From contig NC_037275.1 of assembly GCF_000002425.4 (NCBI RefSeq), positions 4,763,482 through 4,827,481 on the forward strand: a stretch of 64,000 nt of DNA, read 5' to 3'. The position numbers and the translations under genes are program-made. Positions 4,233 through 54,235 of this stretch are shown piece after piece. Numbering within the stretch: the first letter of the stretch is position 1; every line of letters starts with the position of its first letter. The stretch comes from Physcomitrium patens. Taxonomy: Eukaryota; Streptophyta; Bryopsida; Funariales; Funariaceae. The notes under the pieces were generated by a model. The model made no database searches. It was not told the origin of the DNA and was given only the letters and a program-made list of their open reading frames with translations.

Positions 4233-4747
4233 ACTCTTGTCAATCTGAAAAAGACAAGATAATATTAATAAATAAAGTAAAGATAGTTTTAAAGTTGAAT
4301 TATTTGATCATAATAAAATAAAAAACTATAGAGATTTAAAATAAGTATAGGGCTAATTTCTATATAAAAAAATAGAAAGAATACTTAAAATTTTTAAAAT
4401 TCAAGAATTTGGGTGTTTACCTAGAAATTACATGGTGATGTATTATAGGACCTCCAAAACATGTTTACTTTATACAATACATATTTTACCTTATAAGATA
4501 AGTTTTTTTATATGGATAAAATATATTTAGCTTATTTTGCAATCTACTAATATATATGGCACGTAATTAACTTGTTGACCAAATTTTTAACCTACCAATC
4601 AACTATAAATACTTGTAAAATTAAAGCAGCATCTATGAAGATTCTAAAAAGCTTTCTTAAAAGATATTATAAAATTAATCTATTTTATCTATTTTTATCT
4701 ATTTATATTATTTAAATAATAATTCTAATAAATATAAATCTATGATA
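4233..4747 (-). repeat. Gy1 5' LTR and adjoining primer site
   Basis: On the minus strand the LTR begins TATCATAGATTT, the family start TGTCATAGA with G to A, at 4747. It contains the U3 block shared with Gy3 and Gy5 (4437-4700). The sequence immediately after its end reads ATTGACAAGAGT (plus 4233-4244), the same primer-site motif as in Gy4. The R/U5 half (4245-4430) is poorly conserved, and I could not find the CATTCTTGTCA transcript-start motif in it. Confidence 0.7.
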
Positions 4748-5753: not shown

Positions 5754-6157
5754 TTTACATATGCTTCTAGTTAATTGGTAGGTTAGGAATTTAATTAATA
5801 AGTTAACCACGTACCATACATGTTATTAGCTTGCAAAATAAGTTAATTATATGGCGCACATATAAAAAACTTACCTTACAAGTTAAAATATGTGTCTTGC
5901 AAAGTCAGCTCATTTTGGAGGTCCAATAGAATATTGCCATATAGCTATTAATTAGATAGTATATATAAAGAGAAGAGTGAAGCCTTCTTCACTCTTATCA
6001 ACATCTTTTTAGTCTTAAGTCTTATTTCAAGACTTTCTAGTCTTCTTATCTTTGGCAATAGCTATTCTAGTTTAATAATATATCATCTTTAAGTGATTTT
6101 TTAATTCTTGTGAGTGACATAAGAATATATTGAGAATTTCTTTCTTTGAGATTCATA
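5754..6157 (+). repeat. Gy3 5' LTR, partly deleted at its left end
   Basis: The block from 5790 to 6157 aligns with the LTRs of Gy4 and with the Gy3 3' LTR: the GGAGGTCC box, the TATA box (about 5955-5962), the CTTCTTCACTCTTATCA start region and the end GAGATTCAT. The first 100 bp or so of U3 appear lost. The last few bases (TACTTAATA) lie at 11670-11678, on the other side of Gy4, because Gy4 inserted 10 bp short of the LTR end. Confidence 0.75.
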
Positions 6158-6707
6158 TGTCATGGACATATATATTTACCTCAATAGTTACTTATATGAT
6201 TAAGTAGAAGTAGGTAAATATAGAATAATTTCATAAAGTCTTTTAAAAAAGCTTTTTAAAAGCTTCATAGATGCGGCTTTGATTTTAGATGTATTTCTAG
6301 ATTAAAAAATTAGCCAAAAAGCTAACCTTGTATTGGTAGCTTGTGGAACAAGTTATCTCCGTGTAGTAGATTATAGAATAAGGCAACTATGTGGTACATA
6401 TATAGATAACTTGCCTTGCAAGATAAGACATGTGGTTAGTAAAGTCAACACATATTGGAGGTCCTATAGGACATTACCATGTAGCTTTTAGTTAGATAGT
6501 ATATATGGAGGCAAGAGTGAAGCCTTCTTCATTCTTGTCAGTGCACTCCTAGTCCTTAGTCTTATTCCAAGACTTTCTAGTCTTTTTGTCTTTGGAAATA
6601 GCAATTCTAATTCAATAATATATTATTTTTGAGTGATTTTCTAGTTCTTTTCAGTGACACTAGAGTGCATTGAGGGTTTTCTTTCTTTGAGATTCATGTC
6701 CTTGATA
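6158..6707 (+). repeat. Gy4 5' LTR with promoter and transcript-start motif
   Basis: The LTR starts TGTCATGGACATA and ends CCTTGATA (from CCTTGACA). A TATA box TATATAT lies at 6500-6506. The motif CATTCTTGTCAG (6530-6541) lies 30 bp downstream, where transcription should start. The sequence next to the LTR, TTGACAAGAGTG (6710-6721), is complementary to it over 12 positions if two G-U pairs are allowed. The 5' and 3' LTRs differ at many sites, so this is an old insertion. Confidence 0.85.
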
Positions 6708-6708
6708 A

Positions 6709-6721
6709 TTTGACAAGAGTG
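6709..6721 (+). promoter_or_regulatory. Gy4 candidate self-priming primer-binding site
   Basis: TTTGACAAGAGTG follows the LTR end directly. It does not begin with the TGG that pairs with the CCA end of tRNAs, but it pairs with the predicted 5' end of the element's own RNA (CATTCTTGTCAG, 6530-6541). The arrangement resembles that known for Tf1 of fission yeast. Confidence 0.6.
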
Positions 6722-6918
6722 CTAACATATTGTTTCTGTCTTGTTTTAGAAGTGAGTAGATTACTCCACTTCTATTGTTGTATTTTGAAGGTTGCAGACT
6801 ACTTACCTTTAAACAAAAAGTCTCATTTTCTAACACTGATCTTTTTCTTAAAGAGAGTTTTTCTTAAAGAGAGATTATAGATGCTCCTCTCAATTGAAGT
6901 GAGAATAGATTTGCAACT

Positions 6919-7425
6919 ATGGCAGATCTTCATGAGCTTGTCAACACTCTAAGAGTGGAAATCTCACGTATTTCCAACGTGAATCATGGAAGTATTATGC
7001 CTACGCCTATGGAAGAAGTTCAGAGTCTGTGGCAAGAAGTTGTGCACTTGAAAGAAGCAAGTAGATCAACATCACAACTAAATTCAAGGAGTTTTGCTTC
7101 TACAAGTATGACAAGGACAAGGATTAGTATGCATGAGAAGTTTGATGGAACAAGATCAAAATTTCGAAGATTTTTGCAACAAGTCAAGCTTTATCTAAGG
7201 TTACAGCCTTTCTAATATCTTGATGGATTTATCCAAGTTGGATTCATAGGCACACTGCTATCAAGAAGTGCTATCTCTTGCTTTGCACCTTTAATGGAAA
7301 AAGATTCATGACTCCTTTATGATTTGAATTCATTCTTAAAAGTATTTACGGCCACATTCGGAGAAAGTGATCAAGAATGAGTAGCAGAGACCAAGGTTTT
7401 ATCCTTACAATAAGGATCTCCCTGT
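6919..7425 (+). pseudogene. Gy4 gag, N-terminal part
   Basis: The frame opens at ATG 6919 (MADLHELVNTLRVEISRIS) and stays open for 98 residues, ending with the family motif EKFDGTRSKFRRFLQQVKLY. A stop at 7213 follows, and degraded capsid sequence continues to about 7425. There the text jumps straight to the end of the protease (VILGLSWLEK-like, 7430-7500), which skips roughly 900 bp that Gy3 still has. The zinc knuckle and protease active site are therefore missing. In intact relatives gag would build the particle. Confidence 0.8.
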
Positions 7426-7429
7426 AATT

Positions 7430-8580
7430 CGGTTATTTTAGGATTATCATAGCTAGAAAAATATAACCCTCAAATAAATTAGATTTCTCATAACCTTAAC
7501 TTTCTTGATAGTATAATCCAAGATTGCATTAGTAAAGTAGAAGTATGTAAGTCCAATATGTCCAAACCTTTATTAATAGGTATAAAAACTTTCATGCATG
7601 CTGCAAAAAAAAGATCATCTTTTGCTATATATGCTATGCCTATTTCTAATGGTGAAATAACGTCAAGTGGTATTCCTAAGCAATATCAAGAATTCTTGGA
7701 TGTTTTTGAAAAGAAGAATGCAGATATTCTCCCCGAGCATTGACCTTATGATTGTTCAATTGATCTACAAGAAGGAGTTCAACAATAATTCTGATCAATC
7801 TATAGCTTATCGAAGAATGATTTGGCTGCATTAAATGAGTACATTGATGAAAATTTGGCAAAAAACTTCATACATCATTCTAAATCTCTAGCTGGGGCTC
7901 CTATCTTATTTGTGAAGAAGAAAGACGTATCTCTGTGAATGTGTATAGATTATCAAGAACTCAACAAGTTCACCATCAAAAATAGGTATCCTTTGCCTTT
8001 GATTTCAGGACTTCTTGACCAAATCAATCAAACAAAGATCTATACCAAAATAGATCTACAAGGAGCATACAACTTAGTTCTTATCAAAGAATGAGACAAA
8101 TGGAAGATTGCTTTTTAAACTAGGTATGGATATTTTGAATATAATGTCATGCCTTTTGGACTCACGAATGCACCGACCGCTTTTCAACATCTTATGAATG
8201 ATGTTTTTTGTGAGTTTTTAGATTTTTTTATTGTTTGCTATTTAGACAACATTCTAATCTACTCTAAGAACACAAAAGAATATGGGCTTCATGTTCATCG
8301 CGTGTTACAAAAACTTAGAGATGTAGGATTATATGCCAAGTTGGAAAAGTGTGTATTCTACACTACTCAATTTGATTTTTTAGAGTACATCATTTCTAAC
8401 GAATGCCTTATGATGGATTCTAAGAAGGTTCAAACTATCATAGATTGGAAGATTCCAAGAACAGTACGAGATGTGCAATGCTTTTTGGACTTTGCTAATT
8501 ACTATCGAATCTTCATTAAATTTTTTTCTAAAGTTACAGTTCTACTTATACCTTTGATTTGTAAAGACAAACTTGATTGA
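7430..8580 (+). pseudogene. Gy4 protease end and reverse transcriptase
   Basis: Protease C-terminal sequence (7430-7545) is followed by the linker frame 7558-7743 (MSKPLLIGIKTFMHAAKKRS), which ends in FEKKNADILPEH, the usual lead-in to a gypsy RT. RT motifs follow in order: [19 protein letters not shown] with the first catalytic Asp (about 8055), the frame 8149-8580 with MPFGLTNAPTAFQHLMN, and CYLDNILIYSK in place of YLDD. The second Asp of that pair has become Asn, consistent with G to A. Several stops (TGA, TAA) interrupt the frame. Confidence 0.85.
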
Positions 8581-9097
8581 AATAAAGAAGCAAAAGCATC
8601 ATTTGATGCTTTAAAGAAGGAATTTATTTCTGCATCAATCTTATATTGCGTTGACTTCTCCAAGGTATTTTTTTATAGAAACTGACGTGTCAGATTTTGA
8701 TATAGGTGCCATATTGTCACAAATGGGAATAGATGACAAACTCCATCCAATAATTTTCCATTCGAGGAAATTTTGAGTAGCCAAGATTAATTATGAGATC
8801 CATAACAAAGAATTCTTTGCAATCATGGATTCATTTGAAGAATGGCATCATTATCTAGAAGACACCTCAAGTCCACTTATTGTGTATACAGACCATAAGA
8901 ACCTCGAGTACTTCATGTCAGCATATGTCTTGAATTGTCGTCAAGTCCATTGGAATATGATTTATTTAGATTCAATTTTAAATTCATTTATTAATCAAAA
9001 AAATAACAAGGTCTATCAGACTCTCTTTCTAGATGTTCTTATCTTACACCAAATAAAGGAGATGCATCTTTTGATCAACAAAGATCAATTCTCTTGA
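8581..9097 (+). pseudogene. Gy4 RNase H domain
   Basis: After a stop at 8578 the RT-RNase H connection continues with a frame change near 8670 (ETDVSDFDIGAILSQ, with the first Asp of RNase H), then HPIIFHSRKF and, in the frame 8825-9097, VYTDHKNLEYFMSAYVLN with a further conserved Asp. RNase H removes the RNA strand during cDNA synthesis. The normal DALSR box at the domain end is not recognisable; the sequence reads into the linker to integrase. Confidence 0.75.
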
Positions 9098-10110
9098 AGC
9101 CCAAATATTTTCATCTTCGAGCTATAAAATCAACAATGACTATTGATTCAACATTTGTGAGGCAAATTCAATCAAGCATGTCTTCTGATCTTCTTGTTCA
9201 AGATATCAAGGTTACTTCCTCTAAGTCTCATGATACTTCCAAGTTTGAATTCAAGAATAATCTATTATATTTCAAAGGACGCCTATATGTTCTAGAAGGT
9301 GAAGCTCGATTACGTGTTTTTCAAGCTCGTCATGATTTTCTAATAGCAAGATATTTTGGGTATAATAAAACCTTGGAACTAATATCTAGGGATTTTTAGT
9401 GGTCACAAATATAGAAGGTAGTCAAGGATTTTGTATAATCTTGTAATGTTTGCTCAAGTTCAAAAATTCCTTGTCATCGACCTTGCGGACTTTCTTAGTC
9501 GTTATCCATTCCAAAACAACTATGGTCTTATGTTTCCATGGATTTCATCACGGATCTTCTAATCTCAAGTTCTTATGATTCTATATTTGTGATAGTAGAT
9601 TGTTTTACCAAGATGGTACAATTTGTATCATGTACAAAATCTATCATAGGTGAAGAAATAACTAAGCTTTTCATTGATAATTTCTATTACTATCATGGAT
9701 TACTAAAGGATATTATATCGGATAGGAGGACTCAATTTGTATCAAGATTTTGAAGAATCCTATTCAAGATTCTAAAGGTAGATATAAAGCTTTCTTCAGC
9801 TTTTCATCTTCAAATTGATGGACAAATGGAATGGGTAATTCAAGTTCTGGAGCAGTATTTGAGATGTACTATCACTATCATTAAGATGATTGGACAACTC
9901 TTTTACCATTGGCAGAGTTTGCAAATAATAATTTGGTACATTCTTCCACTCAACAAACATCTTTCTTTGCCAATTATATTTATCATCCACATCTTGATAC
10001 TTTTGACTTTTCAAAAGTTGATAATCTTATGGCTGAAGATTTAGCAAATCGCTTGTCAGAGCTACATAGAACAATGAAGATACAATTAAAAGAAGCTAAA
10101 GAATGACAAA
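9098..10110 (+). pseudogene. Gy4 integrase
   Basis: The frame 9094-9399 holds the zinc-binding HHCC region: HDFLIARYFGYNKTLEL, where the second His is Tyr, and after a stop SCNVC. The catalytic core follows at 9538-9753 (MDFITDLLISSSYDSIF with the first Asp, SDRRTQF with the second), and DGQMEWVIQ near 9820 supplies the Glu. The frame 9909-10106 (LVHSSTQQTSFFANY) is the C-terminal part of the core. Stops and small frameshifts separate the pieces. Confidence 0.85.
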
Positions 10111-10389
10111 AGACCAACGTGGATGCCTATCGCAAGGAGCAACCACAATATAATATGGATGACAAGGTATGGTTACTTTGTCATAATATCAAGACTATTT
10201 GTCCTTGTGATAAATTAGATTATTGTAGGCTGAGACTTTTTTTTATTTCAGAATAATTCAATTATGTTGCCTATCGATTACATCTACCAGAGTCTATAAA
10301 GACCCACCATGTATTTCATGTGTCTCTTTGAGAACCGTATAAAATAGTGAATATCTTGAGAAGAAGACAAATACCACTTCTTCCTATAG

Positions 10390-10580
10390 AAGTGGATAAT
10401 AATTAAGAGTTTGAGATGGAAGAAGTCTTAGACTCAAAGTGGCGCTGAAGTAGGTTGGAATATCTTGTTCATTGGTGTGGATATGATATTAGTGAACACA
10501 CATGGAAGCCATGAAAGAATCTTTCAAATGCAGCAAAGAAAGTTGAAGTCTTTTATCAACGACATCCATCAAAACAAAGA
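10390..10580 (+). pseudogene. Gy4 chromodomain
   Basis: Translation gives EFEMEEVLDSKWR, then SRLEYLVHWCGYDISEHTW, then NLSNAAKKVEVFYQRHPSK. This is the fold signature of retrotransposon chromodomains (EVEEILD, LEYLVKWKGY, TWEP, NL). In chromoviruses this C-terminal integrase module steers insertion to chromatin carrying particular histone marks. Two stops (TGA after KW R and within WKP) break it. Confidence 0.85.
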
Positions 10581-10671
10581 TAAAGAATAGCAAACCTTTA
10601 CTATAAAAAAAATAAGATCAAAAGAAAATAATATTCTATCTTCTATCTTTCATTATAACTTTTATATATTT

Positions 10672-11102
10672 GTGATGAAATAGAGCACCAACAACCAGCA
10701 GATTCAACTCAAGAGCTTTCATTTGGAGACTTACTAGACGAGAAATTGCAATTGTCACAATCTTCAAGATGATGAAATCAAGATGAAGATCTTGAAGAAT
10801 AACATGTTTTTCCTCGAATAGATGGCGAGATACAATGTATTTGGTATTACGACCTTAGAAGAGATTCCCGATGTTTAGTGATTTTATTAGAGGTAGGAAC
10901 AACTCATGATGGTATTTCAAATATTTTATTTGAAGGAAGTTATGAAGGCCTCAACAATGACCAAATAATAGGATGGTCTTTTCACTCTAGTATGGGACAC
11001 TATAGATGGTTGAGAAGACCTATCAACCATCTTCAAAGAGAGCAAAGATCGGAGTATGTAGCAAATATAATTTGTCGCATCTTGGACATCCTCAACATAT
11101 GA
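10672..11102 (+). pseudogene. Gy4 3' ORF downstream of the chromodomain, unknown
   Basis: An acidic, Gln-rich lead (EIEHQQPADSTQELSFG) is followed by the frame 10878-11102 with LLEVGTTHDGISNILFEG and SMGHYRWLRRPINHLQREQR, then SEYVANIICRILDIL. The same segment, in the same place between chromodomain and polypurine tract, is present in Gy3, Gy5, Gy6 and Gy7. The common pattern is GHYxWLxxPxNxLxREQxxEY. I do not recognise the family. It follows the pol frame closely and might be a C-terminal extension of Pol rather than a separate protein. Confidence 0.65.
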
Positions 11103-11144
11103 AGACCGTTCCTCATAGAACTCGTCCCTAGAAATGGGTGATAA

Positions 11145-11664
11145 TGTCACAGACATATAAATTTACCTCAATAGTTACTTATATGATTAAGTAGAAGTTG
11201 GTAAATATAGAATAATTTCATAAAGTCTTATAGAAAAACTTTCTAGAAGCTTTATAGATACGATTTTGACTTTAGATGTGTTTGTAGGTTAAAAACTTGG
11301 CCAAAAAACTAACCATGTATTGATAGCTTGTGGAACAAGCCAACTACATGGCGCATACATAAATAACTTGTCTTGCAAGATAAGACATGTGGTTAGCAAA
11401 GTCAACACATGTTGGAGGTCCTATAGGACATCGCGACGTAGCTCTTAGTTAGATAGTATATATGGAGGCAAGAGTGAAGCCTTCTTCATTCTTGTCAATG
11501 CATTCCTAGTCCTTAGTCTTATTTCAAGACTTTCTAGTCTTTTTGTCTTTGGCAATAGCCATTTTAGTTCAATAATATATTATTTTTGAGTGACTTTCTA
11601 GTTCTTTTCAGTGACGCCAAAGTGCATTGAGGGTTTTCTTTCTTTGAAATTTATATCTTTGATA
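11145..11664 (+). repeat. Gy4 3' LTR
   Basis: It starts TGTCACAGACATA after a purine-rich tract (AGAAATGGGTGATAA, 11129-11143) and ends TCTTTGATA at 11664, followed by the duplicated TCATA. It shares the GGAGGTCCTATAGGACAT box, TATA box and CATTCTTGTCA motif with the 5' LTR. Confidence 0.85.
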
Positions 11665-11678
11665 TCATATACTTAATA

Positions 11679-12940
11679 ATTTGATAAGAGTCTTAATTCA
11701 TTGTTCTTGTCCGATTTTAAAAAGAAAGGGATTATTCCACTTCTATTGTTATATTTTGAAGGTTATAGATTATTAACCTATACACAAATTGTTTAGTTTT
11801 GTAATACTAATATTTTTCTTAGAAAGAGAGAATTATCCCTCTTTATAGAAATTTTTATTTGATATTAGAGGTTGATAATTACTTTCTTCTAATTTGACTT
11901 ATTGATTCATTATGTTATTTGAAATAGAAGAAAAAAATCATAGATACTATATTTGGTAGAAGTGAAAATAAATTTGTAACTATTACAAATTTTCACAAAC
12001 TTATTAACACTCTTAGGATAGAAATTTCATACACTACCAATGCTAACTATCAAAATACTAATCTTACGCATATAAAAGAAGTTCAAAGTCTACATTAAGA
12101 AGTTGTGTAATTGAAAAAAACAAGTAGATTGACTTTACAACTAAATCCAAAAAAATTTACTTTTACAAATACGGCAAGGATAAGAATTAGAATGCTTGAG
12201 AAGTTTGATGGAAAAAGATCAAAATTTTGAAGATTTTTACAAAAAATGAAGCACTATCTAAGGTTGCATCCTTTCTCATATTTTCATGGATTTACTCAAG
12301 TTGGATTTATAGGCGTACTTCTATCTAGAAGTATTCTCTCTTGATATGTATCTTTGATGGAAAATGATTCACAAATATTTTATGATTTGAATTTATTCAT
12401 AAAAATGTTGAAGGTCACATTTAGAGAAAGTGATCAAAAAAGAGTAGCAAAGATTAAATTCTTATTTTTGCAACAAGGATCATGATTAACTACCATATAT
12501 GCTACTAAATTTCAAAACCTTGCTTATGATATGGACTAAAATGATAAAATCCTTATCAATCAATTTTGATATGAATTAAAAGATAATGTTAAAGATTTAT
12601 TATCAATAATTCTAAAAATAAAATCTTTAGAATAATTTATTATTTAAGCCATTGCATATAACAATCAATTATTTAAAAGGTGTCAAAAGCAAAGACTTGA
12701 TTGAAAAAAAATAAATTAAGTAATGATAGTAGCTCTTAAGTTCTTAGGACCGAAATCAATATAAATTAATACATTATATTTAAATTCCTTGTAGAGTAAG
12801 AAAAGGCTCAACATCCTCTAAAGGATTTGTACTTATACTGAGGAGAAGCTAACTACATTCTTCAACATTGTCCAAAGAAGCAATGCAATCACAAGATAAA
12901 GACCAAAAAGAAGACAATGTATTAAAAAATAAATTTATCT
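11679..12940 (+). pseudogene. Gy3 leader and gag
   Basis: The primer-site motif TTTGATAAGAG (11680-11690; GATAAGAG from GACAAGAG) comes first, then the leader. Gag starts near 11980 with a decayed copy of the Gy4 start. The segment at 12190-12260 matches the KFDGxRSKFRRFLQQ motif, and capsid sequence runs to about 12700. Near 12830-12875 a zinc-knuckle trace LYxYxGEANYILQHC is seen, where CX2CX4HX4C has lost residues. The nucleocapsid part still exists here, unlike in Gy1, Gy4, Gy6 and Gy7. Confidence 0.7.
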
Positions 12941-13159: not shown

Positions 13160-14823
13160 TGTCGTGTTGTAACACAACTATATGGTGAAAATATAAATGA
13201 AAAAGATTTATTAATATTTAGTCATCTTGGATGTTAAAAACAGTGGCCAATTCCAGTGCCAATATTGAGGGGCCAATTAATGTCACTCCATTGTAAGTTG
13301 TACCACTGAATGTGACAATAGCGTATGCTCCACCGGCGTCATCAAACCAATTATCCTCCGTACCAATGGGACGACAAGGATCATTTTCTAACCCTACATG
13401 GAATAAGCCTAGTAGGTATATACCGATGGAGACACCCAATATGCGTGATGGGGGTGCAAGAAGTTCACTTCATTGTTTCCATAGCAAACAGATTGGTCAT
13501 TATGCTAGTGAATGTCCCAATCCCAGAGCTAGTGACAATTATGTGCCAGTATGTGGGAATAACAAGCAGTCGAGGTATACTTATCAACAATGTAATGCTC
13601 TGTTCAATTTCAATAATCTGGATCAACAGATCCAAAGTCAAGAAAAAAATGAGGAGATAAACTGAGGTCCTCAAGATTCTCCGATAAATCAGGTGGAATG
13701 TGTCCAAGCCGTTCTTACCAAGAGTCGGCAAAAGGAGAAAGGACCAATTCAACTTTCAGGTGAGCTTGATGTAAAGGGCCAATTTGATCCAATTACGAGG
13801 ACATTCAATCTAGGTCTTGTTACAAGCCTCTTATCTAGTATGAGACTTGACTTGGTTGGACAATCCAATGAGGTCCCGAATACGGAGGCTTCGATTCTAT
13901 TTCAAGCTGTTCCATTCTCTATGCTATTTCAAGAAAAATGTACTTTCCATGGAAAGATCCTCTTAGAAGTGGAAATTCCATGGAAGCGTGGTCTGCTATT
14001 CCAATTCCGAATCTAGGGCGGAAGAATAGGAGACCTCACGGAGTTAAATAAAAAGAAAGAAAAAGGAAGAGGGTATTTGGAGATCGGGATTTTTGGGGTC
14101 AAAGAGCTAGCTTCAAGCTCCTTTGAAAGGTATAAGACTTAGTTTCATAGAATTTGGAAGGATTTTGCAATCGTTGTTCAAAGTCAGTATTTGTATTGGT
14201 GAATTGGGTTTTTTTTTTTTTTTGCAATAAAGTTAAGGCTAATACTCTTGATTGTTTTATGAAATTTGAGAAACATCTATAGTTAAAATTTTAGAGGTGT
14301 CTAGATGGTTGAGTTTACCAAGTGCTTGCAAAAATTTGTATTAATCTAACGGTATGGATAGAGGATATTTGATCATTAGTGTAAAGAGGTATTAGAAGTT
14401 TGCATATTGAGATAATTTAGGGTTTCTGTAATATCTGGAGATCTATCAACTGGAATAAGGTGAATTTTGACGTGGTAAGTCGAGGACTTAAAAGAGGAGC
14501 TGCATACAAGGTTTGAATGAGAATTAACAGTTGGAGAAAGAGAAATCACAAGTCAAGGTTTGTCATCAACTTTCTAGGCGGTGGTCAAGGGACATCAATG
14601 TGGATTTACAATGTTTTCTTGTAATTTGTAAGTTAGATTGGATTGAAACTTCTTAAGCATTTAGAAGACTTGCAAAGATACTAGTGGTAGTAGTTTTACA
14701 ACAATCAGACGGTCAGATTGAGAATTACAACTTGTCAAAGCTCGTTGTTTAGAGTTAGGATTTAAAAATTTAAAAATTTAAAATTTAAAATAAAAAATAA
14801 AATAAAAAATAAAAAATATATAA

Positions 14824-14857
<34 letters not shown>

Positions 14858-15107
14858 TTAATAAAAATAAAATAAAATAAAACTAACAAATAACAAAAGA
14901 ATTTGTGCTTATAATATCTCAAAGTTATTAAAAATAGTATTTCTAAGCACTTTGTATTGGGAGTAAGCTTTTATATTTAAATCCAAAATAGTTTATATTT
15001 AGATGGTTGAAATCCACTAAACTACTCGGATACTTACAAAACATCGTTTTATCTTCTACAGCCAGATGTCCGGTGCGTTCTCAAGCAAGATAACACGTAA
15101 TATTACA
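13160..15107 (+). repeat. Tgt1 5' LTR (1948 bp)
   Basis: The right 300 bp (about 14820-15107) match the 3' LTR (20860-21129). The terminal block CAGCCAGATGTCCGGTGCGT followed by TCTCAAGCAAGAT recurs at the ends of Tgt1's 3' LTR, Tgt2 and Tgt3. The left 40 bp (ending TATATGGTGAAAATA) recur at the start of Tgt2 (TATATGGTAAAAGAT). The interior 13215-14060 carries a GC-richer gag fragment that I did not find in the other LTRs. A T-run (14209-14223) and an AAT repeat (14827-14856) are also present. TGGTGAATCCAAC (15112-15124) is a possible primer-binding site. Confidence 0.7.
13215..14060 (+). pseudogene. gag/nucleocapsid fragment of another retroelement inside the Tgt1 5' LTR
   Basis: One frame is open from before 13312 to 14016 apart from a single TGA at 13663-13665. 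It contains a zinc knuckle HCFHSKQIGHYASEC (about 13472-13516), which fits CX2CX4HX4C with the second Cys changed to Ser, then PINQVECVQAVLTKSRQKEK, the kind of sequence that joins gag to protease in gypsy elements. Base composition is clearly higher in GC than the AT-rich flanks. It may be captured or inserted into the LTR, or may mark where the LTR is chimeric. It is not a host gene as far as I can see. Confidence 0.6.
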
Positions 15108-16254: not shown

Positions 16255-17064
16255 TAAACTAATTTTGGCAAAAGAGGTATGAGAGCATTGATTCAAGATT
16301 ATTTAATAGAGCATGGAATAGCAACACAAGAGAGTGCAAGTTATGGTACTAGAGTAGATGATGACTTTGGTGGAAGTATAGAAACTAGTGAATTTTGGGC
16401 TTCTGGCATTTCTACAACGTAAAAAGGAAAAATGCCTAAGGAAGCGTTATTAAGGAGTGCATCTACAATACAAAGTGCAAGAGGTTAGGAAGATCATATT
16501 GAGTCTCTTTCAATTCATGCATATATTGCTAAGAGCCAACATGAAGCTTTGATAGAAGAAAAGAGACGAAGAAATTTTGATGATACAAGAGAAGGAAATT
16601 CTTCTAAGAGGCAAACTCGAGGAGACAAGGCTCGTGAGGTGATTTCACAAGAATTGATTATAAAAGATACTTCAGCCTCATTGGAAGAAAAAATAAAGGA
16701 GACAATAGTTAAGGATAAATCAATTGCTTATAAGCTACTTTTTGATATTGAAGAGGCAACAAATTTAAAAGGAGTGCTAGAAGAACGTATATTACATGCT
16801 AAAGTAGAATTCACATTGAATGAGATTTTGGGAATTGCAAAGAAGGAGTTTCATGATATTATCATTGACAGCATTAAGCAAAAGAAGCAATTAATGTGTG
16901 AAGCTGGAATGAGTCATGGTATTGATATAAGATTATATAAAGATAAAGAAGAGGTTGATAATGGTTACAAGCAATCAACAAATGAAAAGAATGGATATAA
17001 TCAACGAGTACATTTCAAAGATTATAGTGATAAGGAAATAGAAGCTTCAAGCCATTATACTTGA
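16255..17064 (+). pseudogene. Tgt1 charged linker between gag and protease
   Basis: The longest open stretch (16549-17064, 171 residues) begins MIEEKRRRNFDDTREGNSSK and is rich in Lys, Glu and Asp. It includes LEERILHAKVEFTLNEILGI and AKKEFHDIIIDSIKQKKQL, which look helical. It matches nothing I can name. Its position says that it belongs to the gag-pol polyprotein, as the long spacer between nucleocapsid and protease. No catalytic motif is visible. Confidence 0.6.
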
Positions 17065-17089
17065 AAGCATTAAACAAAGACAACTACTG

Positions 17090-17560
17090 AAGTATTGGTG
17101 AAAGTAGGAGATATAGAAGAACCAATTGTTGCTTTAGTTGACCATAGTTCTGAAATAAATCTTATGTCTAAGGATCTTTATAAGAAGTAGAAATGGCTAA
17201 TTGATATGGAACATGGATAGGCAATACGAGCAGCTAATAACACATGATGCGAATTATATGGAGCTTATTTAGATGTCAAAATTTGGATTGGAGATGTTGC
17301 GACAGAATAACATTTCTTTGTTCAAGATACAATGTCTTATCCATTGATTTTAGGATAACCTTATATTACGCCAACACAGATAGAAACAAAAATACTTGAC
17401 GATGGTTCTGCTTATGCAAGGATACGTAGTGAAGATGGAAGGAAAGCTGTACAATTTCTAATAGTACTTCCTAATCATGAACGAAATCGAGATAGGTTGA
17501 AGGAGAAACCATTGCTAAGGGTTGTTGAAGAATTTAAGGATTCTGGAGAAGTACCACTAT
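17090..17560 (+). pseudogene. Tgt1 aspartic protease
   Basis: The translation LVKVGDIEEPIVALVDHSSE then INLMSKDLYKK places the active-site triad as DHSS (17134-17150), where relatives have D[S/H]GS, so Gly to Ser has probably killed it. The second half contains YPLILG followed by a stop and PYI, matching the ILG box at the domain end. Stops at 17188, 17218 and later break the frame. Confidence 0.75.
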
Positions 17561-18275
17561 AAAGCAGGATTATGGAGGTACAAAAGAGGAGGTACTCTCA
17601 CAAGATGAAGGTACCTTTGATGCGAGTTTTATTGGTATTTTTGAGAATGGAAATATTATGTGTAAGAAAGTTGATGATTTTAAAAGAAAAGAAAGAAAAA
17701 GATTATATAATATTGAAAGGAAATTATACAAGTTAGGCACATTAGAAGATGATGAGAGGATTTTAGGTATTTATGAAGAAAATGGATTGGAGGATTCTTT
17801 GGAATTAATTGCATCTATTAAATTAGGAGATAATGATAAGATTAGAAAAATTCATTCGAGGGAGGTTTATACTATACTTGAATCTTTTCAAGCACAAGAA
17901 GTTATTACAGAGACAAAATATAAAATAATAGATAAAAAGGTAAAACCTGCTGCCGAACCTTTACTAGAAGATTCTAAAGAGTAAATGGAAGAAACATCAA
18001 AAGAAGAGACTTTAAGAGATCCAAAGAAGATTGAACATCAGTTTACAAAAGAGACTTTTGAAGAATTGAAGATTGGATGTGATGGTTCTTTATTTCTAAT
18101 AGAAATTAAATATTTTAAAAAAATGCTTACAAAACGAGGTAAATCATTTGCTTTTGGGTCTCGTGAAATAGGATGTATAGATCCTAATTTTTTTGCTCCT
18201 ATGGTTATCTTTATGGTACCTCATGTACCTTAGAACTTAAGGCCAATTTCCATTCCGAGGGCACATTTACCTAAA
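17561..18275 (+). pseudogene. Tgt1 protease-RT spacer
   Basis: Two adjoining frames (17658-17984 and 17985-18233), separated only by a TAA (in phase), encode acidic and Lys-rich sequence that passes into EIGCIDPNFFAPMVIFMVPH, followed by NLRPISIPRA-like sequence. The last part resembles the N-terminal lead of this RT lineage. No enzyme domain is recognisable in the first 150 residues. Confidence 0.55.
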
Positions 18276-19080
18276 GTGGTGGAATTATTGAAAGTAAAGA
18301 TACGAATGAAAATTTTAGAGCCTTCTTTTGCACCATATTCTAGTCGTTGGTTTATGATGCCTAAGAAAAATAGATCGTTACGTTTTATTCAAGATATGCA
18401 GCCAATGAATGTAATAATTATAAGAAATGCAGGTATAGGACTTTTAATAGATGAGTTTGCAGAAGCGTTTGTGGAAAGGACAATTTATTCAATGGGTGAT
18501 TTATATTCGAGTTATAATCAATTTCAACTTGTGCATGGGAGTAGAGATCTAACAACTATGAGAATGCCACTTGAATTACTTAAAATGTGTACTCTCCCAC
18601 AAAGTGCTACTAACTCAATTATACATATGACGAATGAGATAAACAAGGTATTAAGAGACTTCATTCCTGAAAAAACTATGCCTTTTTTAGATGATATTCC
18701 TATCAAAGGATGCAAAGAAGGAGAAAAAGATAAAATTTTAAATAAGAGAGGGTGTCGCAAATATGTTGTTGATCATATACAAGATTTTGAAAAGATTTTA
18801 ACTCGACTTGAAGAGGTTCATCTTACACTTTCAAGAGCAAAATCTATATTTGGAGTGTAGGAAGTTCTTATTGTTAGATATTTGTGTGGGTTTTATGGGA
18901 GAAAGCCAAATCCAAGCAAAGTTGATGCAATTGGAAGGATGAAAGATTCATGTGATTCTTTAACAGAAGTACACAGGTTTTTAGGAGCTTGTGTATTTTA
19001 TCGTATATGGATTCCTCATTATGTTCATGTAGAGGATCAATTGTATGAATTATTACATAAGGGTTATTGATTTAAATGGA
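18276..19080 (+). pseudogene. Tgt1 reverse transcriptase, FLDD type
   Basis: The 194-residue frame 18276-18860 covers the RT palm: SSRWFMMPKKNRSLRFIQDM, IYSMGDLYSSYNQFQLVHGS with the first catalytic Asp, TMRMPLELLKMCTLPQSATN, and TMPFLDDIPIKGC with the catalytic Asp pair (about 18680-18694). FLDD instead of YxDD separates it from the Gy elements. The thumb continues in 18882-19070 (NPSKVDAIGRMKDSCDSLTE, then VHRFLGACVFYR). This is the best kept enzyme domain of the element. Confidence 0.85.
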
Positions 19081-20756
19081 AAAAAAAACATACTAAAGTA
19101 ATGCAGAAGCTAAAGGTGTTATTGGTGACATCTCTAATTCTAAGAAGAATTAATTATGACTATAATAGATAAGTAATTCTTATTGTGGATACTAGTCCTA
19201 TTGCTATTGGATGGACTATGGATCAAGATGATTCAAGTGGAAATAGATTTGTAGTTTGATTTGGAATTAAAGTTTTAAGTACTCGTCAATGTGCATATTT
19301 GCAAGTCAAAAAAGAACTTAGGAGAGTTGTTTCGGCTATGAAAGCTGAAAGGGATTATTTGATTGGTGCAATAGTAGTAATTAAAATAGATTGCTTGTCA
19401 TTGCTTGGAATGATTACTAATTGTTCAATGCCGAATATTACAATATTAAGATGGATTGCTTATATTAAGTCATTAAATCTGGAATTTAAGCATGTTACTG
19501 GAAAAGATAATTTAGTAGCAGACAGGCTATCTAGAGCAAGATATGAAAGAGAAGATGAAATGGTTGAAGACATTAATGATGTTGAATCAAAATTCTATTC
19601 AGTATCAAATTTTAACAAAGAAGACAAGCTATTTCTTGAAGGATTTTATGAAGGAGAATTACTGAGTATTAGTCATTACTTGAATACCTTGACTAAGCAA
19701 GAAAATTGGTCTACAGAAAAATTTAAACAAATAAGAAAAAAAACATATGGATTTTTTCTTCAAGAAGGATTCTTATGGAAGAGAGCAAAAAAAGAAATTG
19801 GAGTGCCACAAAGAGTGATAGGTAATAAGGAAGAGAAACAAAAATTATTAAAGGAGTTTCATGATAGTTTATGGGCAGGACATAGAGAAATTTGGGCTAT
19901 TTTTGCTAAACTTAAGAAACGATATTGGTGGAAAAATATATATCGAGATGTGTTCTTATTTGTAGAGTCATGTGAAATTTGTCAAGTATATTCTAATATA
20001 CGACATCGAGATAGTCTTCATCCTACATATCCTCTAGCTATTCATTTTAAATGGCTTGTTGATTTGGGTATTATGCCAATTGGGTTATGGAAAATGAGAT
20101 ATTTGGTCTAAGCTCGTGAAGATTTATCAAATCAAGTAGAAGGAAGAGCATTGAGAACAAAATCTACAAAAGGAATTTGTAGATTTTTGATTGAAGATGT
20201 TACTTGCTGCTATGGATGTGTAGGAAAAATCACTACAGATTATAGAGAATTAAATGCATAAGAAGCTCGTGAATTCTTTGAAAGATGTGAAATTAAACTA
20301 TCACTGACTATTACTTATAATCCTAAAGGAAATGCAAAAAGTGAGCATGGTCACCCACCGATTGTCAAAGCATTAGTTAAAGCTTATAATGGGAAGGTTA
20401 GAGAATGGCAACAACTTTTTTTATTTGCATTATGGACTGATCGAACAACTTATAGCACAGTAACGGGATATATACCTATTGAGCTTATGACAAGTCAAAA
20501 ATCAATTATGCCAATTAAAGAAAAAATATCTATTTGAAGTGTGTTACTATGGAGAGATGGATTGACAAGAGAAGAACTTCTAGATATTAGAATTCAACAA
20601 TTAGAGCAAAGATCAGAAGATGTGCAAATAGCATTAGAAATGTTAAAAAGAGTAAGGTTACAAAATAAGGCACGATTTGATAAGTAGCATTGATTAAGGT
20701 CTAAAGCAATTGAAGAAGGTGATTGGATTTTGCTCTATGATAGTAGCTTGGACAAT
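19081..20756 (+). pseudogene. Tgt1 RNase H and integrase
   Basis: RNase H: VDTSPIAIGWTMDQ near 19190 holds the first Asp, VIKIDCLSLLGM in the 270-residue frame 19299-20111 another, and KDNLVADRLSRA closes the domain. Integrase: FHDSLWAGHREIWAIF, then SCEICQ, give an intact HHCC. The core has WLVDLGIMPIG (first Asp), ITTDYRELNA (second) and NPKGNAKSEHGH (Glu). A TAA at 20109 and further stops interrupt the core. Sequence after about 20700 is lost, so I cannot tell whether a chromodomain existed. Confidence 0.85.
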
Positions 20757-30127: not shown

Positions 30128-30638
30128 TGTCATAGATATAAATATTTATTTTAATATTAATCTATATACTTAAGTAGAAATAAGTAAAAGTATATTTATT
30201 TCATAATATATTCTAAAAAAGCCATTATTTCACAAGTTAACCATGTCCCTTACATGTTAGTAGCTTATAGAATAAGTTAACTATGTGGCATATTTATAAA
30301 AAACCTATCTTGCAAGTTAAAATACGTGTCTTACAAAGTCAATATATTTTAGAGGTTTTATAGAACATCGCCATATATCATATATACTGTATACTCTATA
30401 GAACATTGCCATATAGCTTTTAGTCAGGTAGTATATATGAAGGCAAGAATGAAGCCTTCTTCATTCTTGTCAATAAATTTTTAGTCTTTAGTCTTCTTTC
30501 AAGACTTTTTAATTTTCTTCTCTTTTGCAATAGCTATTTTGATTTAATACTATATCATCTTTAAGTGATTTTTTAATTATTTTGAGTGATATAAGAGTGT
30601 ATTAAGGATTTATTTTTTTGAGATTCATGTTCTTGATA
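30128..30638 (+). repeat. Gy3 3' LTR
   Basis: It starts TGTCATAGATATAAATATT and ends TCTTGATA. It contains the GGAGGT-like box, a TATA box (about 30431-30438) and CATTCTTGTCAA near 30462-30473. A short internal duplication of TATAGAACATxGCCATATA (about 30360-30417) is seen only here. Confidence 0.8.
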
Positions 30639-36110: not shown

Positions 36111-38013
36111 TATCAATTATACAAATTAGAAGAAGATACATAAATTCGTGGAATCTGTATCAAAAAGAAAGTAAAAAAATAAAAGAAAGTATGTATATTG
36201 AAGGAAGAATTAAAATGGCCATTGCCAAAGACTAAAAAACATAAGATTCTTGAAACTAGACTATAAGAAAAAAAAGAGTTGACAAGAATGAGGAAGGCTT
36301 CATTCTTGCCTCTATATATACTATTTAATTAAGAATTATGTAAAAATATGCTATAGGACCTCTAATATGTGTCCAACTTGTAAGACATATGTCTAATTTG
36401 TAAAGGAAAGTTTCCTAAGTATGCACCATATATCCAATTTGTACTACAAGTAGTCAATATGTTGACAAGTTGTCGTATGGCATGATTTGCTATCTGGAAA
36501 TACACTGGGTATCTAGTTATAGAGAGTGTAGCTTAAACCTTTATATGAAACTTGTATTAGCCTCCCAAAACTCCTTTATTTTGAATAAAACTCAAAATAT
36601 AACAAAACCCCTTCAAAACATATTTCTCCCGCAAAGGGTTTTCTTGTTCTGAACTTTAGAAAATAATAACTCTTAATATAATTGTTTAATTTGTTTCAAA
36701 TTTACAGGATAGGTAGAATTCACCCTTAAATTTTATCACAAAAAAAACCAACTACAAATTCATTCCCGAACTTCTAGCATCTAAGAAACCCTAGTAGATG
36801 CTCTAAACCCTAATTTACAAGCATCTGAACACTATTTTCTTAATATTTCAAGAATCCAATACTCAAATGTCATAAAACTTAAGTATAAAGTTTACTAACA
36901 TAAAATTACACATTTCTTGAAATTTTGAGCCAAAACCTTGTCAAATTGCTCAAGATATAGCTCAAGAGACAACCACTAGTAAATCGGATTACTTACTACC
37001 CTTAGATTGCATGTGCTGACTTCAAAATCCAATAACTCCTTTACTTCAACTTATAATCCAGTAAGCAGTATGTGAAAAGTGTAGCCGCAAAAGTGTTCTC
37101 TTCAATCGCAGTCGCCAATCTTCAATTGCTATTCGTATGTGTGCGTTATGCCAAAAAGAGTGACAGTAGCTCCCAAATCAAAACCTTAACTTTGAGCGCT
37201 TGTATCTTCTTTATATAAACTCCAAACCATACAAAACTTATACCAAAACCATAGCCAAAAACCTAAAACTTCTGATCCTAGCCTTCAAAACTCGAATGGC
37301 CTCGAGAATCTAATCCTAATCCCTAATATGGCCTCGGGCAGCCTCCTCAAAGCCCATTGGTCATGATTTTTGACCAATAGGAATGGATATTTTCATCATC
37401 TATCTCCATTCATTTATATTGGTGCCCTAATTATTCCCTTTGCTACCAAAACCCTTCTTTAATCTTTTTTTATTATAAGATTTAATAATTTATGCTCTAA
37501 ACATCAAATAAAAGAATCAAAATAAGTTTATAAATGTCACCAATGTCTAACAAAGGTGACTCTAAATATTTAGAAGTTACTATCAACCAAAACCAATCTT
37601 AAAAGCCACTATCAAAAGGAAATTAAAGTTATACAAATTCTATAGTAATCTTTTTAAACAACCTCTTAACAAAGTAATGATCAAATTATATTCTACAACC
37701 AACTAAAATCTACTAACATGGCTCTCACCATGTTACTTAATAAATTATACATTAAGTACATAATTACATTATTTTCATATAGTAGCCAAACCACAATACG
37801 ACAACGTGGCTACCTTGTTGGCCAAGTTTTCAACCTATCAATCACATATAGACATGTATAAAGGTAAAGCAACTTCTATGAATCTTTTAAGAAGTTTTCT
37901 ATAATATATTATCATATTTATCTATTTTGACTTACTTTTGTCTACTTTTATTATCTAGATAATTATGAGAATAAACATATATATCCATGACATTATCTCC
38001 CCTTCTATGAATA
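36111..38013 (-). repeat. Gy5 3' LTR, split by Tgt3
   Basis: On the minus strand it starts TGTCATGGATATATATGTTT (38013) and ends AATTGATA (36111). CATTCTTGTCAA (36285-36296 region), 30 bp or so after a TATATATA box, is the predicted transcript start. Tgt3 lies inside U3 between 36471 and 37803. Confidence 0.8.
36471..37803 (-). repeat. Tgt3: solo LTR of the Tgt family (1333 bp)
   Basis: Plus-strand ends are TGTCGTATGGCAT and CACAATACGACA. In reverse complement the end block reads CTAGATACCCAGTGTATT, matching the Tgt1 and Tgt2 ends. It is bounded by AAGT (36467-36470) and ACGT (37804-37807). The uninterrupted Gy5 5' LTR has ATGT at this point, which supports a 4-bp duplication of ACGT. No coding frame is visible. 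Confidence 0.75.
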
Positions 38014-43874: not shown

Positions 43875-43891
43875 ATGTACTCTTGTGAATT

Positions 43892-44441
43892 TGTGAAGAA
43901 TAAAAACTGGAAGAAGATACATAAACTTGTAGAATCTATGTCAAAAGGAAAGTGACAAAATAAAAAAAAATATATATTTGTATATTCAAAGAAGAATTGG
44001 AATGGCTATTGCTAAAGATTAGAAAACACAAGACTCTTGAAACTAGACTAAAAGCAAGAAAAGAATTGGCAAGAATAAAAAAGGCCTCACTTTTACCTCT
44101 ATATATATTATTTAATTAAGAACTATGTGGCGATATGCTATAGGACCTCTAATACGTGTCCAACTTGTAAGACACATGTCTAATTTGTAATGCAAGTTTC
44201 TTAGGTGTGTACCATATGTCCAACTTGTATTATAAGTGATCAACATGTTGACATGTGGCATCATTGTTGGCCAAGTTTTCAACCTATTAATCACCTATAG
44301 ACATGTGTAAAGGCAAAGTAGCATCTATAAAGCTTCTAGGAAGCTTTCTACAAGATATTATCATATTTATCTACTTTGACTTACTTCTATTTATTTTTAT
44401 TATCTAGATAATTATTAGAATAAATATGTATGTTCGGAACA
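43892..44441 (-). repeat. Gy5 5' LTR
   Basis: On the minus strand it starts TGTTCCGAACATACATATTT at 44441 and ends TTATTCTTCACA at 43892, followed by the primer site AATTCACAAGAGTAC (43877-43891). It shares U3 blocks with the 3' LTR. The predicted transcript start reads TTATTCTTGCCAATTC, which has drifted from CATTCTTGTCAA. Confidence 0.8.
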
Positions 44442-45093: not shown

Positions 45094-45107
45094 GTTTATC
45101 GAGACTA
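45094..45107 (+). promoter_or_regulatory. Gy6 candidate self-priming primer-binding site
   Basis: GTTTATCGAGACTA follows the LTR end directly. TCGAGA pairs with TCTCGA of the transcript-start motif AATCTCGACAAC, and the following A/T position differs by a transition. No TGG for tRNA pairing is present. Confidence 0.55.
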
Positions 45108-45699: not shown

Positions 45700-46290
45700 A
45701 ATCTTTTTCTTTGTTTTATTATACATGTATGATTAGGAGTCACAAAACTAAAGTATCAGGCATTACTTGACTTAGAAGCCTCCGCATGTTTTATTGACAA
45801 AGAATTTTCTAAATTACATAAAATCTATATGGTCAAAAAATCCAAAGCTGTACATATAGAAGTAATAGATGATCGACCTTTATCCTCTAGAGACGTCACT
45901 CATGAAACGATTTCATTAGAAATAACCTTTGACAACCATAACAGTCAAGTAGTATTCAACATCATTAGATCACCATCAAGTTCAATCATTTTAGGTCTCT
46001 CATGGCTTAAAAAAGATAATCTATAGATAGATTAAATATCCCAAAAGTTAGAATTTCTTCTAGTAGATTATAGAATCCTCATATCTATGAAAAAACTTCT
46101 AACACCTGATAAGCCAAAACTTAAACAACATTTATTTATTGGAACTAAAGTATTTGTGAGGGTGGTCAAATAAGGTATTATGTTTGCTATCTATGCAAAT
46201 CTACAATCAAAACCTATGGTTGCTACAATAATAATTCCAAAGGCATATAAGGATTTTACAAATATATTTGAAAAAAAAAATGTGGACATC
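45700..46290 (+). pseudogene. Gy6 protease
   Basis: With one frame change the sequence reads KYQALLDLEASACFIDKEFS (active site DLEA for DSGA), then in the frame 45829-46026 AVHIEVIDDRPLSSRDVTHE and PSSSIILGLSWLKKDN. The linker FIGTKVFVRVVK leads to NIFEKKNVDI, at which Gy7 is inserted. The text resumes at 50418 with LPKHCPYNYTIDLQED. Confidence 0.8.
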
Positions 46291-46649
46291 TATCAAGGAC
46301 ATACACTAGGAAGTTGTAGAAGATTCTAAAAGGTTCTAGAAAAGCTTTGTAGTTTGTAGAAGTTGTTTAAGAAGCTTCCTAGCTAGTGGAAGCTGCTTGA
46401 GAAGCTTCATAGATTGTGAAAGCTACTTAAGAAGCTTCCTAACTCATAGAAGCTGCTTGAAAAGCTTCCTAGCTTGTAGTATATATAAGAGCCAAGACTA
46501 AGGAGATCCTCAATCTCGACAACACATCTCTTGGAGCTCTAGTTCACCTCTCTAATGTTGATCTTGTACTCATCTGATTAATCTAGTTCTTGCCAATTCT
46601 TCTTGAGCTTCTTGTTTAGATTTCCAGTCCGTATTCTAAATTCGTGACA
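46291..46649 (+). repeat. Gy7 5' LTR with four 30-bp repeats
   Basis: Four tandem 30-bp units of the type GAAGCTGCTTGAGAAGCTTC plus CTAGCTTGTG occupy 46359-46478, immediately before a TATATAA box (46480-46486). The transcript-start motif AATCTCGACAAC is at 46512-46523, 32 bp after the TATA start. A short GAAGATTCTAAAAGGTTCTAG stretch lies at 46319-46339. Confidence 0.85.
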
Positions 46650-46663
46650 GTTTGTCGAGACTA
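46650..46663 (+). promoter_or_regulatory. Gy7 candidate self-priming primer-binding site
   Basis: GTTTGTCGAGACTA begins one base after the CA end of the LTR. TTGTCGAGA is the exact reverse complement of TCTCGACAA (46514-46522) at the predicted 5' end of the transcript. Confidence 0.65.
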
Positions 46664-50412: not shown

Positions 50413-50417
50413 ACCTC

Positions 50418-52860: not shown

Positions 52861-53089
52861 ATATCTTCTTCGACGCAATATAAAAACCAATAGGCCATGT
52901 AATAAGTTGGACTATCGAAGGTTATGACCATTTGTGATTCAAAAATAAATTAATTTTATAACTTATTGCTTGGAATTACCTTCATCTATGAAGATTCATC
53001 TAATCTTTTATATTTCAATTTTGGAAAGGTATAAAGAATCAAACATACTAGGTCAAAGACAATCTCCACTTCCTATGGTTGAAATCAAT

Positions 53090-53283
53090 GATCATATTGA
53101 ATTTAAGGTAGAAGAGGTATTAGATTTAAGGATAAGATATAGAAGGCTTGAATATCTGATCTATTGGTGTGGATATGATATCAACGATTGCATATGGGAA
53201 CTAGTTGGCAACCTTATAAATACACAAATGAAGGTTCAAAGATTCTATCAACAACATACATCCAGATCAAAAGTAACAAAATG
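53090..53283 (+). pseudogene. Gy6 chromodomain, open frame
   Basis: Within the frame 52970-53284 the sequence DHIEFKVEEVLDLRIRYRRL, EYLIYWCGYDINDCIWELVG, NLINTQMKVQRFYQQH is an uninterrupted chromodomain. It keeps the aromatic residues F, W and W/Y expected for a methyl-lysine cage, so it is the best preserved copy in the window. Confidence 0.9.
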
Positions 53284-53872: not shown

Positions 53873-54235
53873 TGTCATAGACATACAACTGAAGAAGATT
53901 CTAAAAGGTTCCAGAAGTTTTTAGAAGATTTTAATAGCATCTAAAAATACTCTAGAAGATTCTAAGAAAGTTTTAGAAGATCATAGGAGATCTTAGAAGG
54001 TTCTAGAAGGCTTTGTATGATTTAGAAAGTTGCCAGGCTTCATAAAAACTTCTAAAGAAGCTTTCTAGGACCTAATATATATAGGAGTCGAGTCTAAGGA
54101 GATCCTCAATCTCGACAACTCATTTCTTGTGGTCTAACTATGACCTTCTTGCCTTGTATCTAGTTGTTGTTCTAATGTCAAGCTAACTCCATTTCTTGGT
54201 CTTGAATCCTTATCTTGTATATGGTCCCTAAGACA
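53873..54235 (+). repeat. Gy6 3' LTR
   Basis: Starts TGTCATAGACATACAACTGA and ends GTCCCTAAGACA. The GAA/TTC-rich block is shorter than in the 5' LTR (53890-54015). A TATA box lies at about 54074-54081 and AATCTCGACAAC at 54108-54119. Confidence 0.85.

What the first reader, a model, noticed from the sequence alone, without database searches (positions are those of the whole stretch)
6530..6721. Ty3/gypsy chromoviruses with co-varying self-priming sites
Right after the 5' LTR none of the Gy elements has a tRNA-type TGG site. Gy4 has TTGACAAGAGTG (6710-6721), complementary (with two G-U pairs) to CATTCTTGTCAG (6530-6541), which lies 30 bp after the TATA box. Gy7 has TTGTCGAGA (46652-46660), the exact complement of TCTCGACAA (46514-46522), again about 32 bp after its TATA box. 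Gy6, Gy5, Gy3 and Gy1 show the same layout with decay. The two subfamilies have different sequences at both places, yet pairing is kept, which is compensatory change. Tf1 of fission yeast and sushi-type elements prime reverse transcription with the first bases of their own RNA; I know of no widely described plant case.
Basis: partly seen in the sequence, partly recalled or inferred. Interest (0 to 1): 0.87.

Follow-up and report, generated by a model that had tools for sequence, protein, structure and literature searches.

The report
Self-primed moss retrotransposons with mirror hairpin
Jumping genes in a moss appear to start copying themselves with the first 11 letters of their own RNA, and a short mirror sequence beside the promoter may hide the second copy of those letters so that only the right end is used.

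Summary
Both complementary pairs lie where stated. They hold genome-wide: the RNA-start 11-mer is the best complement of the site after the LTR in 88 of 93 other Gy4-type copies and in 30 of 30 sampled Gy7-type copies, about 31-32 bp after a TATA box. The host is the moss Physcomitrium patens (98% protein match). The elements are chromodomain Ty3/gypsy elements of Tf1/sushi (Tcn1) type. Self-priming was already predicted for moss and club-moss Tcn1 elements (Neumann 2019, passages), so "no plant case" is wrong and the core is a member of a known kind.

One part seems new. Between TATA box and RNA start lies a third copy, P', that pairs with the RNA start as a 12-13 bp hairpin. P', R and PBS differ together across three sequence families (Gy4; Gy7/L001; L002-L005). 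P' is upstream of the inferred start, so it should occur only in the 3' end of the RNA. In folding models it usually stops the 3' R from capturing the PBS. I propose a cis lock that reserves the PBS for the 5' end: inferred, not shown.

The parts
6157..6707 (+). Gy4 5' LTR (about 8 bp missing at its start); partner LTR 11144-11664
   Evidence: LTR-LTR match 85%
6500..6506 (+). TATA box of Gy4, 31 bp before inferred RNA start
6510..6522 (+). P' of Gy4: mirror of the PBS, 5' arm of the 13-bp hairpin
   Evidence: 13/13 paired, loop of 4
6531..6541 (+). R start / self-primer of Gy4
   Evidence: best complement of the PBS in the LTR, 14/1000 shuffles
6710..6720 (+). PBS of Gy4, 2 nt after LTR end
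   Evidence: 11/11 pairs with R, two G-U; 94 exact copies of the 23-mer starting here in the genome
11467..11479 (+). P' of second Gy4 LTR
   Evidence: 13/13
11488..11498 (+). R start of second Gy4 LTR
11681..11691 (+). PBS after second LTR (tandem copy)
   Evidence: 11/11 with two G-U
5970..6001 (+). P'-loop-R of a partial LTR; both arms differ from Gy4
   Evidence: 12/13
30442..30473 (+). P'-loop-R of the LTR at 30.1-30.6 kb
   Evidence: 13/13
36279..36310 (-). P'-loop-R of a minus-strand LTR
   Evidence: 12/13
44066..44097 (-). P'-loop-R of minus-strand element E38
   Evidence: 12/13 with wobbles, fold not better than shuffles
43879..43889 (-). PBS of E38, decayed
   Evidence: 9/11, not significant alone
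4233..4243 (-). PBS of another minus-strand copy in whose LTR no R start was recognised
   Evidence: 1 mismatch to the Gy4 12-mer, after CA+GA
46275..46649 (+). Gy7 5' LTR (start approximate); 3' LTR 50081-50413
46491..46503 (+). P' of Gy7, decayed here
   Evidence: 9/13; >=12/13 in 23 of 30 genomic copies examined
46512..46522 (+). R start / self-primer of Gy7
   Evidence: 6/1000 shuffles
46652..46662 (+). PBS of Gy7
   Evidence: 10/11 with own R; 1676 exact LTR-end+PBS 18-mers in genome
44968..44978 (+). R start of Gy6, decayed
   Evidence: 9/11 with PBS, not best in its LTR
45096..45106 (+). PBS of Gy6
54087..54118 (+). P'-loop-R of the Gy6 3' LTR
   Evidence: 10/13
52949..53281 (+). chromodomain and SH3_Tf2-1-like stretch of Gy6 integrase
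   Evidence: PF00385; PF24626 below its cut-off; nearest solved relatives are CDYL and HP1 chromodomains

Best explanation
These are Tf1/sushi-type (Tcn1 lineage) chromoviruses of a moss. RNA starts at the A about 31-32 bp after the TATA box; its first 11 nt fold back onto the PBS 2 nt after the 5' LTR and, cut off by RNase H as in Tf1, prime minus-strand DNA. P', just upstream of the start, is absent from the RNA's 5' end but present before the second R near the 3' end, where it forms a hairpin with that R. This keeps the 3' R (and R in read-through RNA) off the PBS, so only a properly started 5' end primes. Shown: sequence, positions, conservation, covariation. Modelled: the competition. Inferred: start site, cleavage, priming and the lock function. 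My odds: self-priming 0.9; P' as such a lock 0.5.
For: R-PBS: (90.9% vs 36-47% slid), (88 of 93 copies, 55 of these 88 perfect Watson-Crick; TATA exactly 31 bp upstream in 83 of 88; 30 of 30, 25 perfect; L001, L002, L004, L005 each 11/11 Watson-Crick). The 11-nt length equals that of Tf1 (PMC7175516 passage). In 5 of 8 leaders folded (Gy4, L001, L002, L004, L005) the minimum-energy fold has all 11 primer-PBS pairs. P'-R: 10 LTRs, 88.5% vs 38-55% slid; all 5 hairpins with >=12/13 pairs, loop 4 and >=4 GC pairs found on the scanned + strand of the 64 kb are at this spot; shuffles mean 0.42, at most 2; 93.5% vs 39-53% slid; 68 of 88 with >=12/13; P' conservation 0.91 against 0.76-0.77 in flanks; 92.8% vs 31-45%; 5 of 6 outside hairpins z -5.8 to -8.6. 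Swap test: 11/11 matched, 3-9 swapped, for both interactions in three families. Lock: barring P' moves the PBS from 5'R to 3'R in most tests and control blocks do not. 3'R exceeds 5'R in 28 of 29 Gy4-type copies with P' barred, 2 with P' free, 3 with a control block; in Gy7-type 19, 0 and 0 of 30.
Against: No transcript 5' end, primer or cDNA was examined. E38 and Gy6 R-PBS are not above chance; hairpin folds of Gy7_5, E38 and Gy6_5 are no better than shuffles. The count of P'-R pairs changed on both sides (4) is reached by 183 of 500 shuffles, of R-PBS (3) by 50 of 500. In 5 of 93 Gy4-type copies R is not found in the expected range, one of them a perfect R 158 bp away. The minimum-energy leader folds of Gy7, the tandem copy and Gy6 lack primer-PBS pairs, and whole leaders fold no or little better than shuffles (z -1.42, 0.26, -1.00, -1.97). 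With P' free the 5'R-PBS pairing is itself low in some models (L001 0.084, Gy4 0.106). One test does not switch (Gy7 leader with Gy6 3' tail: 3'R only 0.127), Gy7 is weak (0.447), and 11 of 30 Gy7-type copies do not switch. L007 pairs its putative R and PBS over 13 bp but has no P', so P' is not needed for self-priming in general. P' could act at DNA level.
Confidence: 0.6

Rival explanations
1. Ordinary self-priming only; the P'-R palindrome is a promoter or initiator element read as DNA, for instance a dyad site for a transcription factor.
For: P' lies between TATA box and start and is nearly as conserved as they are.
Against: Its sequence differs between families while complementarity to that family's R is kept; a protein site would tend to keep its sequence. 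G-U pairs are frequent in the hairpin (71 of 88 Gy4-type copies; 30 of 30 Gy7-type), which fits RNA rather than DNA pairing.
Confidence: 0.2
2. Transcription starts before P', so the RNA begins with the hairpin, and the hairpin itself is cut to make the primer.
For: The hairpin contains most of the primer and has a 4-nt loop in all three families.
Against: P' begins 10-11 bp after the TATA box, too close for a usual start (general knowledge, recalled); R is 31-32 bp from TATA in nearly all copies; P' would then compete with the PBS.
Confidence: 0.1
3. P' is a by-product of reverse transcription: minus-strand strong-stop DNA folds back on its 3' end and copies itself, so P' is rewritten from R rather than selected. 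Likewise the PBS is recopied from the primer each cycle.
For: P' resembles the PBS of the same family (7/9, 8/9 and 9/9 in Gy4, L001 and L005); such copying would keep all three in step without selection.
Against: P' holds G-U pairs that copying would turn into perfect complements (71 of 88; 30 of 30). The stem runs 3-4 bp beyond the PBS-like part.
Confidence: 0.15
4. Chance resemblance or tRNA priming; no self-priming.
For: Two decayed copies are not above chance. No P. patens tRNA set could be searched (not completed).
Against: Genome-wide counts; sites begin TTG, not TGG as a tRNA 3' CCA end requires.
Confidence: 0.03

Closest known systems
Tf1 of Schizosaccharomyces pombe (Tf1/sushi group)
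   Same: First 11 nt of the RNA complementary to the PBS, RNase H cut between nt 11 and 12 (PMC7175516 passage).
   Different: Host; no P' hairpin is mentioned in the passages read. The three-duplex 'pretzel' (PMC10085805 passage) was seen only in part: in Gy4 a second duplex joins LTR sequence to the stretch just before the PBS.
Plant Tcn1 lineage (REXdb)
   Same: Moss host, chromodomain with cage residues, no tRNA-type site, predicted self-priming (PMC6317226 passages).
   Different: That survey asks for complementarity over at least 10 bp by blastn; the passages read mention no P'. Its supplementary tables could not be read here.
RLG1 of Physcomitrium patens
   Same: Main chromodomain gypsy family of this genome, the most highly expressed TE (PMC7466625 passages; a table there lists 5092 for RLG1, heading not seen). 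Gy7-type has 1676 exact LTR-end+PBS 18-mers, so Gy7 is probably RLG1.
   Different: Identity with RLG1 is inferred, not tested against its sequence; 'pbs' occurs 0 times in that paper's main text.
SM-Tcn1 of Selaginella moellendorffii
   Same: Same lineage in a non-seed plant.
Conserved Hairpin Site of fungal GalEa copia elements
   Same: Hairpin near the priming region in elements without a usual PBS (PMC5445492 passages).
   Different: It lies after the 5' LTR and its authors found no complementary LTR sequence; P' is inside the LTR.

Membership tests
Tf1/sushi (Tcn1) self-primed chromoviruses | PBS complementary to the RNA 5' end | tested here: met
   (RNA 5' end inferred from TATA distance)
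Tf1/sushi (Tcn1) self-primed chromoviruses | no tRNA-type (TGG) PBS | tested here: met
   sites begin TTG/TTC/TTA 2 nt after the LTR; 0 of 88 with TGG; not compared with a tRNA set
Tf1/sushi (Tcn1) self-primed chromoviruses | integrase with chromodomain and SH3_Tf2-1-like domain | tested here: met
   Chromo above cut-off in the window, SH3_Tf2-1 below cut-off there; both above cut-off in L003, L006, L008
Tf1/sushi (Tcn1) self-primed chromoviruses | aromatic cage kept in chromodomain (group I) | tested here: met
   F, W, Y in Gy6 at the positions aligned with CDYL; Y, W, Y in L003-L006. Which positions form the cage is recalled.
Tf1/sushi (Tcn1) self-primed chromoviruses | RT/RH/INT phylogeny inside the clade | not tested
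   no seed-plant chromovirus references at hand; of the 120 integrase relatives listed (245 found) the 5 with an organism name are Austropuccinia (4) and Capsaspora (1)
Tf1/sushi (Tcn1) self-primed chromoviruses | three-duplex 'pretzel' leader fold | tested here: inconclusive
   central duplex in 5 of 8 leaders; second duplex in Gy4; third not seen
Tf1/sushi (Tcn1) self-primed chromoviruses | RNase H cleavage after nt 11 yields the primer | not testable with these tools
   needs RNA and cDNA mapping
RLG1 of P. patens | sequence identity with annotated RLG1 | not tested
   only abundance and chromodomain type agree

The most novel reading that the evidence does not exclude
Self-primed plant chromoviruses carry a third covarying site, P', that locks the 3' copy of R in a hairpin, so that an RNA with two identical primer sequences uses only its 5' end. 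It would be an end-identity switch for self-priming, and a proof-reading step against read-through RNAs.
Probability: 0.5. Interest if true: 0.75.

Novelty: new variant of a known kind. Interest (0 to 1): 0.6.

Why it matters
Self-priming poses a puzzle: the primer sequence occurs at both ends of the RNA, yet only one copy should prime. A conserved mirror sequence placed where only the 3' copy carries it would answer that, and is directly testable in a model moss whose most expressed family is probably this one. It also gives a signature that does not depend on a fixed sequence (TATA, 31-32 bp, 12-13 bp hairpin, CA+2 nt+PBS) for finding self-primed elements and placing their RNA start without transcript data.

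Tried and rejected
Related loci in viral contigs: none. ARAGORN in the window: no tRNA (bacterial settings). Checking the PBS against P. patens tRNAs was not possible: three requests unanswered (116, 119, 121). Two isolated matches at 20562 and 56987 were looked at; neither looks like a PBS after an LTR. L008 shows no convincing R-PBS pair and no LTR was recognised; L006 stops inside U3. L003's 5' copy was scored at a wrong offset for the hairpin and is decayed (R-PBS 7/11; fold z -0.59). Host of L002-L006: a gag search named no plant among the 120 of 181 hits listed, only the fungus Cetraspora, so the fern Azolla is a guess from the MAG name (Trichormus includes T. azollae). E38's R was one base off and redone. 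Papers: the listings of ten searches and the passages read in ten papers showed no description of P'; most subscription papers and all supplements are outside what I could read, and the original Tf1 papers that I asked for are not held.

Full report
What is there. The window lies in a 470-Mb genome. An ORF at 62109-63227 matches a Physcomitrium patens protein at 98% identity over 79% of its length, so the host is this moss. The elements are decayed Ty3/gypsy copies with RT, RNase H, integrase and chromodomain pieces.

Observation. Both complementary pairs are at the stated coordinates. Read from the likely +1 A, the primer is 11 nt, the length reported for Tf1. The PBS follows the LTR end after a 2-nt spacer: AT, GT, AA or GA in the window; GT in 71 and AT in 16 of 93 genomic Gy4-type copies. 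In the window, R-PBS is individually significant in 3 of 5 elements and not in 2. The alignment as a whole pairs at 90.9% against 36-47% slid.

Genome-wide test. I took every exact copy of the 23-base Gy4 PBS with its flank (94) and examined the 93 outside the window; the PBS was fixed by this choice, R and P' were not. The best complement within 690 bp upstream was the R start, at 160-200 bp, in 88 of 93. Of these 88, 55 pair perfectly without G-U, and 83 have TATA exactly 31 bp upstream. For Gy7, LTR end plus PBS occurs 1676 times. The first 30 listed, all on contig C1 and some possibly duplicates of one another, gave R in 30 of 30, perfect in 25. The imperfect pairs in the window thus look like decay of a perfect pairing.

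The third site. Between TATA and R start each family has P', a mirror of its PBS, forming a 13-bp (12 in L002-L005) hairpin with a 4-nt loop that buries the first 9 nt of R. All five hairpins of this kind found on the scanned strand of the 64 kb sit at this spot, 0.42 expected. Over 10 window LTRs 88.5% of cells pair against 38-55% slid; over 88 genomic Gy4-type copies 93.5% against 39-53%; over 30 Gy7-type copies 92.8% against 31-45%. P' conservation is 0.91, TATA and R arm 0.95, flanks 0.76-0.77 (indels lower the flank values). In the window the hairpin is strong in the Gy4-type LTRs and weak in several Gy6/Gy7 ones.

Relatives from elsewhere. A scan of prokaryote genome contigs found eight loci that look like eukaryotic contaminants. 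L001 is 81% identical to Gy7 pol over 1264 bp, so probably another moss. Its primer and PBS pair 11/11 and its hairpin 13/13. L002, L004 and L005 (a MAG called Trichormus; host unverified) have a different primer, AAGGCGAACAA, with PBS 11/11 and hairpin 12/12; L003's 3' end shows the hairpin 12/12 and its 5' copy is decayed. L005 has a long stop-free pol stretch ending in the chromodomain. Swapping arms between three families drops pairing from 11/11 to 3-9 for both interactions. L007 pairs a putative R and PBS over 13 bp but has no P' (best 7/11 upstream).

Mechanism. R occurs twice in such an RNA. P' precedes R only in the 3' copy, if RNA starts at the A. In two-strand folding models with P' free, the PBS pairs with 5'R and little or not with 3'R (one Gy7 set-up gives 0.23 for 3'R). 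When P' is barred from pairing, the 3'R takes the PBS (Gy4 0.62/0.00 becomes 0.07/0.89; none of 15 control blocks does this). Of five set-ups four switch; the Gy7 leader with the Gy6 3' tail does not. In one search L001, L002, L004, L005 and Gy4 reach 0.75-0.95 for 3'R, Gy7 0.45, control blocks at most 0.15. Among genomic copies 3'R exceeds 5'R in 28 of 29 Gy4-type (30 given, one lacked R in range) and 19 of 30 Gy7-type with P' barred, against 2 and 0 with P' free and 3 and 0 with a control block. This supports, but does not prove, a lock that reserves the PBS for the 5' end. In-silico pairing ignores proteins, and the start site is inferred.

What is known. Self-priming is known or proposed for Tf1, sushi, Tj1 and others and is predicted for plant Tcn1 and TAR elements (passages read). 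An earlier paper found no priming site for Selaginella SM-Tcn1. None of the paper searches listed under Tried and rejected turned up P' in the listings and passages I saw. The finding is thus a well-supported member of a known mechanism with one apparently new part.

Noticed in passing
44630-54229: Gy7 (about 46275-50413) is nested inside the older Gy6, whose LTRs are about 44630-45093 and 53869-54229.
   Followed up: partly
6157-12700: Gy4 is part of a tandem: the second LTR (11144-11664) is followed by another PBS and leader. Such LTR tandems are described for plants (PMC11899658, passages).
   Followed up: partly
6150-6160: A partial LTR (5791-6156) lacking its last bases abuts the Gy4 LTR lacking its first bases, an LTR-LTR junction.
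   Followed up: no
16549-20111: Pol pieces of a different gypsy-type element, between similar stretches 14816-15102 and 20839-21124 (89%); its priming site was not analysed.
   Followed up: no
L007:5832-6041: An element in an Alphaproteobacteria MAG contig pairs a putative R and PBS over 13 bp, without P' and with R about 55 nt from a TATA-like box.
   Followed up: partly
L001-L008: LTR retrotransposons that look eukaryotic occur in bacterial MAG records, probably contamination.
   Followed up: partly
62109-63227: ORF of a conserved plant protein without a Pfam hit, 98% identical to a P. patens protein over 79% of its length.
   Followed up: partly
33500-33877: Array of imperfect tandem repeats; also an A+T array of about 13-bp period at 24577-24823.
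   Followed up: no
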